64,000 nt of DNA from Afipia sp. P52-10 (GTDB taxonomy: Bacteria; Pseudomonadota; Alphaproteobacteria; Rhizobiales; Xanthobacteraceae): positions 2,474,313 through 2,538,312 of the forward strand of contig NZ_AZSJ01000003.1 of the NCBI RefSeq assembly GCF_000516555.1. The letters run 5' to 3'. Under the pieces are notes generated by a model that worked only from the letters and a program-made list of their open reading frames with translations, made no database searches and was not told the DNA's origin. The translations under genes were made by a program, and so were the position numbers. This document shows positions 45,980-62,775 of the stretch, one piece after another (position 1 is the stretch's first letter; each line of letters begins with the position of its first letter).

Positions 45980-46357
45980 CGCACACCTCGCAACAGACAA
46001 CTGAGACGAATGTCGGACACGATATGCCGAGGCGCCGATGCGGCGCTGGACGGCGGGAGGCGTGGCAGGGACTCATGACATGTCTGCTCCATCATCTCGC
46101 ATGAGAGAGATAACGGGGCCGTCCCCAACGACACGCTGACGCAGGTCGTCCTGCGCAGGCGTTTTTTAAGCGCCGCGGGCGGCGGATGCAAGCGCGCGGG
46201 CTGTTTACGGCCGCAGCGCATGCCCGCTGCGCAAAACCTGCAATGTCAGCAACTGGACCGATGCGACGAGACAAAAGATTCGACGAGACAAAAAAGCAGC
46301 CCGCGATCGGGGTCCTCGGCGGGCTGCGAAAAGAATCGAAAATGATGGGAAAACGAA
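45980..46357. other. Intergenic region with a terminator
   Basis: No gene. It carries the minus-strand terminator at 46288-46327 for the His-rich protein and, next to it, the direct repeat GACGAGACAAAA (about 46265 and 46283). The 5' end should contain the atpB promoter. Confidence 0.55.
46288..46327 (-). terminator. Rho-independent terminator of the His-rich protein gene
   Basis: On the minus strand, GCAGCCCGC (46327-46319) pairs with GCGGGCTGC (46304-46296) over a 14-nt loop and is followed by TTTTTT (46295 down to 46290). Points out of the gene ending at 46358. Confidence 0.8.
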
Positions 46358-60021: not shown

Positions 60022-60486
60022 TCAGCGCTTTGCCGGCGAATGTGCGTGCGGGTGTGTGTGGGCAGCGTGCGCCTTGCCGCCGCGCTCGCGCGCCGGGATC
60101 ATCACCACGCGGCCATAACGCACGCCGCGCTCGGCGATTACATGATCGGCGAAGTGCTGAATCTCGCCCCGGCTGCCCTTCAGCGCGGTGATCTCGAGAC
60201 ACGATGCGTCGTCGAGATGCACGTGCATGGTGGCGACGGCGATGTCGTTGTGTTCGTGCGCGGTCTCCACCAGCCGGTGCGAGAGGTTGCGGGCCGCATG
60301 ATCGTAGACATAGACCAGCGCGCCGGCCCAGGGCTCGGCCTGGTCGCCATCGGCCTGCATCTGCGCAAGCCCGTTGCGCGCGAGATCGCGGATCACCTCG
60401 GACCGATTCTGATAGCCGCGCTCTGTCGCGATCGCATCGATCGCGGTCAGCAAATCGTCGTCGAGGGTGATGGTGATCCGCTGCAT
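60022..60486 (-). CDS. nikR: Nickel-responsive regulator NikR
   Basis: A 154-aa repressor. Ribbon-helix-helix domain MQRITITLDDDLLTAIDAIATERGYQNRSEVIRDLARNGL, then the ACT-like nickel-binding domain. Residues equivalent to the E. coli nickel ligands His76, His87, His89 and Cys95 are His77, His88, His90 and Cys96 (HEHND, MHVHLDDASCLE). A His-rich tail (KAHAAHTHPHAHS) follows. ATG 60486. Divergent from a TonB receptor with a matching operator between them. Confidence 0.95.
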   Translation of the reverse strand: MQRITITLDDDLLTAIDAIATERGYQNRSEVIRDLARNGLAQMQADGDQAEPWAGALVYVYDHAARNLSHRLVETAHEHNDIAVATMHVHLDDASCLEITALKGSRGEIQHFADHVIAERGVRYGRVVMIPARERGGKAHAAHTHPHAHSPAKR

Positions 60487-60529
60487 GATGCCTCCGACAA
60501 CTCCGGTTGAACGTCCACAGGTCGCGATT

Positions 60530-60563
60530 CCAGTATGCTGTTTTATTGACATCATCATACTGG
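60530..60563. promoter_or_regulatory. NikR operator (GTATG-N18-CATAC)
   Basis: CCAGTATG (60530-60537) and CATACTGG (60556-60563) are perfect inverted arms around 18 bases. E. coli NikR binds GTATGA-N16-TCATAC, which has the same 18-base distance between GTATG and CATAC. TTGACA at 60546-60551 lies inside it. Position is between nikR and the divergent TonB receptor. Confidence 0.85.
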
Positions 60564-60615
60564 TGGATGATGGTGCCAACGGACAGTGCCGCCGGGCTCG
60601 GTCCGGGGGCTTGAA

Positions 60616-62775
60616 ATGTTCTATCGTGAAGCGAACCGCAGCGCGCGGGCAATTTTTCCGTGCGCCGCGCATGTCTGTGCCATTCTTGCGAGCGGCATTG
60701 TGGCGACGGCGCTTGTTGCAACAGGACTCCTGGCGCCGCGCGCGGCCATCGCACAAAGCAACAGCACGTTGCCGCCGATCGTCGTCAGCACGGAGCAGCA
60801 GCGGGCGCCGGATGCGCCGGTGCCGGCCGCGTTCGGGCCGCCGCGCGAGGCCCCGAAGACGGCGAGCGAAATGGATGTCACGGGCGGCGAGGTCAACGCG
60901 GTCGCGGTGACGCGGCCCGGCGAGGCGCTCGAAGCCGTGCCGGGGCTGATCGTCACCCAGCACTCCGGCGAGGGCAAGGCCAACCAGTATTTCCTGCGCG
61001 GCTTCAATCTCGACCACGGCACCGATTTCGCGATCACCGTCGATGGTATGCCCGCCAACATGCGCACGCACGGGCACGGCCAGGGCTATGCCGACATCAA
61101 CTTCCTGATTCCCGAATTGATCGGGGCGATGCGTGTGCGCAAGGGGCCGTACTTCGCCGACGAGGGCGATTTCTCCTCCGCGGGTGCTGCGCATATCGAC
61201 TACATCAACCGCGTCGACAAGACGTTCGCCGAATTGACCGTCGGCAGCTTCGGCTACCGCCGCGGGCTTGCGGTCGGCTCGCTGCCGGCCTGGAGCGGCA
61301 ACATCCTCGCGGCGCTCGAGGTGACCGGCTACAACGGGCCGTGGGACGTGCCCGACGACGTGCGCAAGATCAATGGCGTTCTGCGCTACAGCGAAGGCAG
61401 TCGCGACGACGGCCTCTCCGTCACCGGGATGGTCTATCGCAACAAGTGGACCTCGACCGATCAGGTCGCGCAGCGCGCGATCGACGAGGGGATCATCGGC
61501 CGCTTCGGCTCGCTCGATCCGACCGACGGCGGCAGCGCCGAGCGCTACTCGCTGTCGGCGCGTTGGGCGAAGACGCACGAGGCCGGCATCACGCGGGTCG
61601 AAGCCTACGGCATTCGTTCGCGGCTGCGGCTGTTCAACAACTTCACCTATTTCCTCGACGATCCGGTCAACGGCGACCAGTTCAGCCAGAGCGACCGCCG
61701 CACGCTCGCCGGGCTCAACGCCAGTCATACCTTCGATCATCGCCTCGGCGATTTGCCGTCGGAGACGGTGATCGGCCTGCAATCGCGCTACGACGACATC
61801 CATGTCGGCCTGACCAAGACCGCGGCGCGGCAGTATCTCTCGACCGTGCGCGACGATCATGTGCGCGAGGGCAGCGTCGCGCTGTATGCGCAGAACACGC
61901 TGCGCTGGACCAGTTGGCTGCGCACCGTAACCGGCGTCCGGCACGACTGGTTCGCCGCCGACGTGGCCAGCGATACGCCGGCGAATTCCGGCAAGGTGCA
62001 GTCGGGCATGACCAGCCCGAAGTTCGGCCTGGTGATCGGTCCGTTCAAGGCGACGGAGTTGTTCTTCAATGCCGGCACTGGCCTGCACAGCAACGATGCG
62101 CGCGGTTCGACCATCACCGTCGATCCGGTGACGAAAATCGATCCGCTGCCGCGCTCGCCGCTGCTGGTGCGCTCGAAGGGCGCGGAGATCGGCGCCCGCA
62201 CGACGATCGTGCCGGGTCTGGAAAGCGCGGTGGCGTTCTTCGTGCTCGATTTCGATTCCGAACTGCTGTTCGTCGGCGATGCCGGTACCACCGAGGCCAG
62301 CCGTCCGAGCCGCCGCGTCGGCGTCGAGTGGACCAACCGCTACGGGGTCAATTCCTGGCTCGCATTTGACGCCGATGTGACATTCACCCGTGCCCGCTTC
62401 ACCGATGCCGATCCGGCGGGCAATTTCATTCCCGGCGCGCCGAATGCGGTGGCCTCGCTGGCGGTGGTGTTCGGCGAGCCGCTCGGCTGGTTCGGCTCGA
62501 TCAAGCTGCGCTATTTTGGTCCACGGCCGCTGGTCGAGGACGGCAGCGTGCGTTCGAAGGCGTCGGCGCTGGTCAACGCCCGGCTCGGCTACCGGTTCGA
62601 AGGCGGCGCCCAGCTTCAACTCGACGTGCTCAACCTGTTCAACGCCAAGACCAACCAGATCGAATACTTCTACGAATCGCGACTGTTTGCGGAAGCAACC
62701 GCGGTTGCGGATCGTCACGTCCACCCGGTCGAGCCGCTGGCGGTGCGGGCCTCGCTGCGGTTGCCATTCAATTAG
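60616..62775 (+). CDS. TonB-dependent receptor, probable nickel importer
   Basis: A 719-aa outer-membrane receptor. Signal peptide ends near AAIAQ at residue ~47, then a short linker with a TonB-box-like PPIVVST, plug domain (RPGEALEAVPGLIVTQHSGEGKANQYFLRGFNLDHGTDFAITVDGMPANMRTHGHGQGYADINFLIPELIGAMRVRKGPYFADEGDFSSAG) and barrel ending in LRLPFN. HGHGQG in the plug may bind metal. The gene is divergent from nikR and shares its operator, so nickel is the most likely substrate. ATG 60616. Confidence 0.9.
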   Translation: MFYREANRSARAIFPCAAHVCAILASGIVATALVATGLLAPRAAIAQSNSTLPPIVVSTEQQRAPDAPVPAAFGPPREAPKTASEMDVTGGEVNAVAVTRPGEALEAVPGLIVTQHSGEGKANQYFLRGFNLDHGTDFAITVDGMPANMRTHGHGQGYADINFLIPELIGAMRVRKGPYFADEGDFSSAGAAHIDYINRVDKTFAELTVGSFGYRRGLAVGSLPAWSGNILAALEVTGYNGPWDVPDDVRKINGVLRYSEGSRDDGLSVTGMVYRNKWTSTDQVAQRAIDEGIIGRFGSLDPTDGGSAERYSLSARWAKTHEAGITRVEAYGIRSRLRLFNNFTYFLDDPVNGDQFSQSDRRTLAGLNASHTFDHRLGDLPSETVIGLQSRYDDIHVGLTKTAARQYLSTVRDDHVREGSVALYAQNTLRWTSWLRTVTGVRHDWFAADVASDTPANSGKVQSGMTSPKFGLVIGPFKATELFFNAGTGLHSNDARGSTITVDPVTKIDPLPRSPLLVRSKGAEIGARTTIVPGLESAVAFFVLDFDSELLFVGDAGTTEASRPSRRVGVEWTNRYGVNSWLAFDADVTFTRARFTDADPAGNFIPGAPNAVASLAVVFGEPLGWFGSIKLRYFGPRPLVEDGSVRSKASALVNARLGYRFEGGAQLQLDVLNLFNAKTNQIEYFYESRLFAEATAVADRHVHPVEPLAVRASLRLPFN

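What the first reader, a model, noticed from the sequence alone, without database searches (positions are those of the whole stretch)
60486..62775. NikR operator between nikR and a TonB receptor marks a nickel uptake unit
CCAGTATG-N18-CATACTGG matches the E. coli NikR spacing exactly and is shared by the divergent promoters. All four nickel ligands of NikR are conserved. The plug domain has an HGHGQG stretch. Outer-membrane nickel import by TonB receptors is known in Helicobacter; here the sequence supports the same in a rhizobial relative.
Basis: partly seen in the sequence, partly recalled or inferred. Interest (0 to 1): 0.5.

Follow-up and report, generated by a model that had tools for sequence, protein, structure and literature searches.

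The report
NikR-controlled outer-membrane nickel receptor gene
The window carries a nickel-sensing repressor gene beside the gene for an outer-membrane import receptor with the repressor's binding site between them, an arrangement seen in many related bacteria and already predicted in print for close relatives.

Summary
A perfect NikR-type operator (60530-60563) lies between nikR (60022-60486, minus) and a TonB-dependent receptor gene (60616-62775, plus), far beyond chance. A motif-only scan of 149 same-family genomes hit 24; all 25 places read of the 26 found lie beside nikR, a TonB-dependent receptor (in 21 of 25 this family), a NiCoT nickel permease or a small FmdE-domain protein, and 23 of the 24 genomes encode NikR. 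In relatives whose nikR lies elsewhere the operator stays with the receptor or a NiCoT-receptor operon, so the uptake gene is the conserved target. All four NikR nickel ligands are present, and the genome encodes urease with a HupE/UreJ permease. This is a new member of an already predicted family (Bll6948, RPA4757, pHCG3_081). Two corrections: HGHGQG is not a nickel signature, as the histidine pair is also kept in receptors under cobalamin riboswitches; and transport is inferred, not shown. New beside it: a receptor-NiCoT cassette (receptors 97% identical) stands beside urease and nikR with a NikR-like site in one Methylobacterium but under a cobalamin riboswitch in another. NikR operators also front FmdE-domain proteins.

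The parts
60022..60486 (-). nikR, nickel-responsive ribbon-helix-helix repressor, 154 aa, with a histidine-rich tail
   Evidence: Pfam NikR_C 9.2e-27 and RHH_1 2e-10; NCBIfam NikR equivalogs over cut-off; E. coli NikR 1q5v E 1.7e-41; ligands H77, H88, H90, C96
60530..60563 (.). NikR operator CCAGTATG-N18-CATACTGG
   Evidence: conserved in relatives
60546..60551 (+). TTGACA inside the operator spacer, candidate -35 of the receptor gene
   Evidence: read from the sequence; a T-rich stretch with TTG recurs at this place in many rows; the consensus promoter scan did not report a plus-strand promoter
60551..60579 (-). sigma-70-like promoter candidate for nikR (TTGGCA-17-GATGAT) overlapping the operator
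   Evidence: 9 of 12 matches; consensus match only
60616..62775 (+). TonB-dependent outer-membrane receptor, 719 aa, predicted nickel receptor
   Evidence: Pfam Plug 4e-13 and TonB_dep_Rec_b-barrel 2.1e-23; model pLDDT 83.5, pTM 0.83; folds like PqqU/YncD, FoxA, FecA and other receptors
61069..61086 (+). HGHGQG codons, receptor residues 152-157, in the plug

Best explanation
A two-gene nickel-uptake unit. When cytoplasmic nickel is sufficient, Ni(II)-NikR binds 60530-60563 and blocks transcription of the receptor gene, and probably of nikR itself. When nickel is scarce the repressor leaves and the receptor is made. The receptor, driven by TonB-ExbB-ExbD, carries nickel, probably as a chelate, into the periplasm. 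Inner-membrane carriers encoded elsewhere, most likely the UreJ/HupE protein of the urease operon, take it into the cytoplasm for urease. Shown here by sequence: both genes, the operator, the ligand residues, operator conservation and linkage, urease and UreJ in the genome, and no [NiFe] hydrogenase match. Inferred: binding, direction of regulation, nickel as the substrate, the chelate, and the carrier pairing.
For: Operator unique in the window. The stricter pattern AGTATG-N17-TCATACT occurs once in the own 5.09 Mb genome, here. In 149 family genomes it hits 24 (26 places); the backwards control has 2 matches in 2 genomes. Of the 26 places 25 were read, and all 25 lie beside NikR, a TonB-dependent receptor, NiCoT or FmdE: a receptor in 22 (one, L075, only 26% identical), NikR in 16. 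NikR is in 23 of 24 operator genomes and in 36 of the other 125, Fisher p = 4e-10. In G112 and G143 the operator precedes a NiCoT-receptor pair and nikR is on another contig. Of 12 order-level genomes with the receptor 11 have NikR, against 45 of 199 overall. Of 80 named homologues 34 have an operator at up to 1 of 12 mismatches within 700 bp upstream, against 0 of 80 in an equal downstream stretch; 35 have nikR within 4 kb. Urease and UreJ are present; hydrogenase is not found. Other receptor genes of this genome sit under cobalamin riboswitches.
Against: No expression, binding or transport data. 16 of 80 named homologues have neither NikR, the operator nor a cobalamin riboswitch, among them L093, the most identical homologue (71%). 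One operator genome (G241, same genus) has no NikR match; its operator region matches that of G035 and it is listed at 5% contamination, so it may be a stray contig. The family also serves under cobalamin riboswitches (at least 20 of 80), so the substrate may be cobalt or both metals. No permease lies in the unit and none of the own-genome permease loci has a good operator. The receptor-direction promoter is only a partial consensus match (one search lists none).
Confidence: 0.85

Rival explanations
1. The receptor belongs to a Ni/Co-shared family: it moves nickel and cobalt alike, perhaps on the same chelator, and the regulator in front of it decides which metal it serves. Here NikR makes it a nickel receptor in practice.
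For: At least 20 of 80 homologues lie under a cobalamin riboswitch (50 of the 80 loci were scanned with Rfam: 44). NikR and riboswitch labels need at least 3 changes on the receptor tree (65 of 81 rows labelled). M. oryzihabitans L137 (nikR, ureC, NikR-like site, receptor, NiCoT) and M. ajmalii L140 (riboswitch, receptor, NiCoT) share 97.2% receptor identity and 89.8% DNA identity over 3068 bp that spans receptor and NiCoT only.
Against: No transport data for either. The L137 operator is imperfect (1 of 12 off) and rests on one locus. The two metals might be separated by a few of the residues that differ.
Confidence: 0.4
2. The receptor imports another ligand, such as an iron siderophore or cobalamin, and NikR control is incidental.
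For: Solved relatives by sequence are YncD/PqqU and BtuB; fold matches are mostly siderophore receptors.
Against: Operators and gene neighbours are consistently nickel-related; the fold matches listed are only 12-18% identical; BtuB-like and other receptors in this genome sit under cobalamin riboswitches.
Confidence: 0.08
3. The operator controls nikR only and the receptor lies there by chance.
For: The operator is 43 bp from nikR and a minus-strand promoter candidate overlaps it.
Against: In genomes with nikR elsewhere the operator stays with the receptor or NiCoT-receptor pair.
Confidence: 0.03

Closest known systems
Predicted nickel TonB-dependent receptors Bll6948 (Bradyrhizobium), RPA4757 (Rhodopseudomonas), pHCG3_081 (Afipia/Oligotropha) and Daro_3944; the prediction is cited to Rodionov et al. 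2006
   Same: Related hosts and gene order; the pHCG3 plasmid has hyp genes, nikR and a receptor 53% identical to this one with a NikR site at 1 of 10 mismatches between them
   Different: A separate species and a chromosomal contig; here the neighbours are a response regulator and a pepF-like gene, not hydrogenase genes. The 2006 paper is not held; its predictions were seen as table rows or passages in PMC3400609, PMC7142613 and PMC11247825. That pHCG3_081 is the gene read is inferred from the plasmid and gene type
Helicobacter FrpB4, FecA3 and NikH
   Same: NikR-regulated TonB-dependent outer-membrane nickel uptake (passages in PMC7055735, PMC7689651, PMC11247825)
   Different: Those have experimental support; no sequence comparison with them was made here
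E. coli NikR-nikABCDE
   Same: Same operator spacing and NikR ligands
   Different: The target is an outer-membrane receptor, not an ABC importer
Cobalamin-riboswitch TonB receptor-NiCoT-CobW unit (Novosphingobium example in PMC7689651, passage)
   Same: Receptor with NiCoT permease; the window's receptor family has such members
   Different: Regulated by a riboswitch and assigned to cobalt

Membership tests
NikR | RHH DNA-binding domain plus NikR_C nickel domain | tested here: met
   Pfam and NCBIfam
NikR | His-His-His-Cys nickel ligands | tested here: met
   H77, H88, H90, C96; ligand identities recalled
NikR | Nickel-dependent DNA binding | not testable with these tools
   needs purified protein
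NikR operator (E. coli type) | GTATGA-N16-TCATAC palindrome | tested here: met
   exact spacing, 11 of 12 arm letters (GTATGC left arm)
NikR operator (E. coli type) | Conserved in front of orthologous genes | tested here: met
TonB-dependent receptor | Plug plus large beta-barrel | tested here: met
   Pfam, model, Foldseek; barrel strands were not counted one by one
TonB-dependent receptor | TonB box and TonB dependence | not tested
   residues 1-79 have low confidence in the model; tonB/exbBD were not searched
Nickel TonB-dependent receptor | NikR control and nickel gene neighbourhood | tested here: met
Nickel TonB-dependent receptor | Nickel transport | not testable with these tools
   needs an uptake assay
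   His pair in 81 of 81 homologues, including 20 under cobalamin riboswitches; not a published defining feature

The most novel reading that the evidence does not exclude
The window's receptor belongs to a metal-neutral outer-membrane receptor family whose metal is set by wiring: the same receptor, at times with a NiCoT permease, is swapped between NikR operators and cobalamin riboswitches, once at 97% receptor identity; and NikR also recruits an FmdE-domain protein, probably secreted, as a further nickel-uptake or nickel-binding part in neighbouring genera.
Probability: 0.35. Interest if true: 0.55.

Novelty: new member of a known kind. Interest (0 to 1): 0.3.

Why it matters
In the passages read, experimental support for TonB-dependent nickel import is cited for Helicobacter; for these alphaproteobacteria it is prediction. 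The footprint evidence here makes that prediction strong and testable. The near-identical L137/L140 pair offers a direct test of whether such receptors tell nickel from cobalt, and the FmdE link points to a nickel-linked protein for which no paper naming both FmdE and NikR was found in the held library.

Tried and rejected
A loose motif (GTATG-N18-CATAC, 2 mismatches) in the own genome gave 551 places against 632 for the backwards control, so it carries no signal; its listing did not show the window's own exact site, which one search does. One A/T-rich 1-mismatch site (L005) was looked at: it lies before a regulator gene with no visible link to nickel and was dropped.

The own-genome NicO hit (L064) looks RcnA-like, with a histidine-rich loop, and has no operator at up to 1 of 10 mismatches; it was not taken as the partner importer.

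Opine metallophore: PF10100 was not found in the own genome, but no control genome rang either, so this says nothing.

A metal site could not be measured in the model because its coordinates are not in the Python box. The HGHGQG-as-nickel idea was rejected. A first script read some loci on the wrong strand and was redone.

Papers: the 2006 source paper is not held; FmdE with NikR, none; FmdE with nickel and periplasmic, 3 papers seen in the listing only; Oligotropha carboxidovorans with NikR and nickel, none.

Full report
What is there. The operator CCAGTATG-N18-CATACTGG is at 60530-60563, exact, and is the only match at up to 3 mismatches in the window (shuffle mean 0.05). It lies in the 129-bp gap between nikR (60022-60486, minus) and a TonB-dependent receptor (60616-62775, plus). 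Palindromes of this geometry are common (6 in the window); the sequence is what is specific. E. coli's operator is GTATGA-N16-TCATAC (PMC7055735, passage): same spacing, one arm letter different here.

Is it an operator? I searched for the motif alone, without reference to genes. AGTATG-N17-TCATACT exact occurs in 24 of 149 same-family genomes at 26 places; the same pattern read backwards gives 2 matches in 2 genomes. In the own genome it occurs once, at this site. 25 of the 26 places were fetched and read (one of the three in G270 was not). All 25 stand beside NikR, a TonB-dependent receptor, NiCoT or an FmdE-domain protein: a receptor in 22 (one of them, L075, a different receptor at 26% identity), NikR in 16, NiCoT in 2 (both also with the receptor), FmdE with NikR in 3 (L078, L089, L090). 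Two of the 25 loci (L068, L091) overlap, with two operators 182 bp apart.

NikR itself is found in 59 of 149 family genomes. Of the 24 operator genomes 23 have it, of the other 125 36 do; Fisher p = 4e-10 (related genomes are not independent, so the value is only a guide). The exception, G241, has the same operator sequence and the same receptor identity value as G035 and is listed at 5% contamination.

What does it control? At order level the receptor is in 12 of 199 genomes and NikR in 45 of 199; 11 of the 12 have NikR. In the six same-family genomes of that scan with both (own genome included), the exact operator stands upstream of the receptor or of the NiCoT gene before it in all six, although nikR is elsewhere in three (G035, G112, G143). 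In G112 and G143 the order is operator, NiCoT, receptor. Near the remote nikR copies of G035 and G143 no operator at up to 2 of 10 mismatches was found in the loci read (L038, L039; for G112, L035 has only 178 bp upstream). So the uptake genes are the conserved target; autoregulation of nikR is likely where it is adjacent but seems not to be required. TTGACA at 60546-60551 lies inside the operator spacer, and a T-rich stretch with TTG recurs there in many of 54 rows (that set holds 24 of the 25 family loci and 30 of the 80 named ones, chosen for having the site). The consensus scan reports only a minus-strand promoter, overlapping the operator. Repression by blocking the polymerase is therefore an inference.

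Named homologues. The receptor alignment A1 pulled 80 loci (the best 80 of 580 that encode a relative). 34 of 80 have an operator at up to 1 of 12 mismatches within 700 bp upstream, 0 of 80 in an equal downstream stretch; 35 of 80 have nikR within 4 kb; together 44 of 80. Rfam scans covered 50 of the 80: all 36 without NikR or operator plus 8 with, and 6 more with. A cobalamin riboswitch lies before the receptor in 20, all of them among the 36; none in the 14 scanned NikR or operator loci, nor in the window. The other 30 NikR or operator loci were not scanned. 16 of 80 have neither, including L093, the most identical homologue. Three of those 16 hold a weak or odd-spaced operator (L107, L113, L149), and in L114 the contig ends at the gene.

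Regulator swap. On a tree of 81 receptors (SH-aLRT support only) NikR and riboswitch labels need at least 3 changes. The sharpest case: L137 (Methylobacterium oryzihabitans: nikR, urease alpha, NikR-like site, receptor, NiCoT) and L140 (M. ajmalii: riboswitch, receptor, NiCoT). The receptors are 97.2% identical and the DNA match, 89.8% over 3068 bp, covers receptor and NiCoT only. The L137 site is 1 of 12 off. This suggests that the receptor does not itself fix the metal. That NikR sites mark nickel and B12 riboswitches mark cobalt uptake systems is known (PMC7689651, passages), and a change from nickel to cobalt by riboswitch was proposed for another importer (PMC2667541, passage).

The plug motif. 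H-x-H-x-Q-G is present in all 81 rows. HGHGQG is in 31 of 35 NikR-linked rows (window included), 9 of 9 operator-only rows, 11 of 16 unlabelled rows and 2 of 20 riboswitch rows, but L137 carries its clade's HAHGQG although it is in the NikR class. It follows descent, not metal. In the separate 12-row alignment one receptor (L029) has NAHAQG.

Host physiology. The own genome has a urease operon with UreJ, a RcnA-like NicO protein and no match to [NiFe] hydrogenase (some control genomes rang). Three cobalamin riboswitches lie elsewhere, one before a BtuB-like receptor and one before another receptor (those labels are read from the sequences). So nickel for urease is the likely use.

Known or new. 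PMC3400609 (passages) lists Bll6948, RPA4757, pHCG3_081 and two Daro proteins as one nickel/cobalt cluster; PMC7142613 (passages) marks BLL6948 as predicted, citing Rodionov et al. 2006; PMC11247825 (passages) names Bll6948 among nickel receptors. The plasmid pHCG3 has hyp genes, nikR, a 1-of-10 operator and a receptor 53% identical to this one. A Bradyrhizobium guangxiense plasmid has operator, NiCoT, receptor and hydrogenase genes, and pHG1 of Cupriavidus necator has a hydrogenase subunit, NiCoT and the receptor (no operator was found in the pHG1 stretch nor in L198, where nikR precedes the receptor). The finding is thus a new member of a predicted kind.

Side finding. FmdE-domain proteins occur in 20 of 149 family genomes; the three read in full (L078, L089, L090) start with a signal-like stretch. 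10 of the 20 loci have an operator at up to 2 of 12 mismatches just upstream of the gene or of a UreJ-FmdE pair, 6 of them at up to 1; 5 have nikR in the locus. In L078 this gene takes the receptor's place between nikR and a pepF-like gene.

Noticed in passing
L078:964-1464, L089:1549-2046, L090:991-1488; L172-L185: NikR operators stand before small FmdE-domain (PF02663) proteins, beside nikR or UreJ; in L078 the gene takes the receptor's slot between nikR and a pepF-like gene. Candidate nickel-linked periplasmic protein.
   Followed up: partly
L137:5671-9003 and L140:5481-9009: Near-identical receptor-NiCoT cassette beside urease and nikR with a NikR-like site in one Methylobacterium and under a cobalamin riboswitch in another.
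   Followed up: yes
L075 (G219): NikR operator and nikR beside a different TonB-dependent receptor, 26% identical to the window's.
   Followed up: no
L068, L091, L174 (G270): Two NikR operators 182 bp apart between a divergent FmdE gene and the receptor.
   Followed up: no
L077 (G241:C32): Operator region and receptor match those of G035 in another genus while NikR is missing; possibly a stray contig in that assembly.
   Followed up: no
window 46115-46157, minus strand: Marginal Guanidine-II (mini-ykkC) riboswitch match, 34.3 bits against a cut-off of 32, upstream of an ATP synthase a-subunit-like gene; may be chance.
   Followed up: no
L132, L137, L145: 5_ureB_sRNA matches near the receptor loci, which suggest urease genes nearby.
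   Followed up: no
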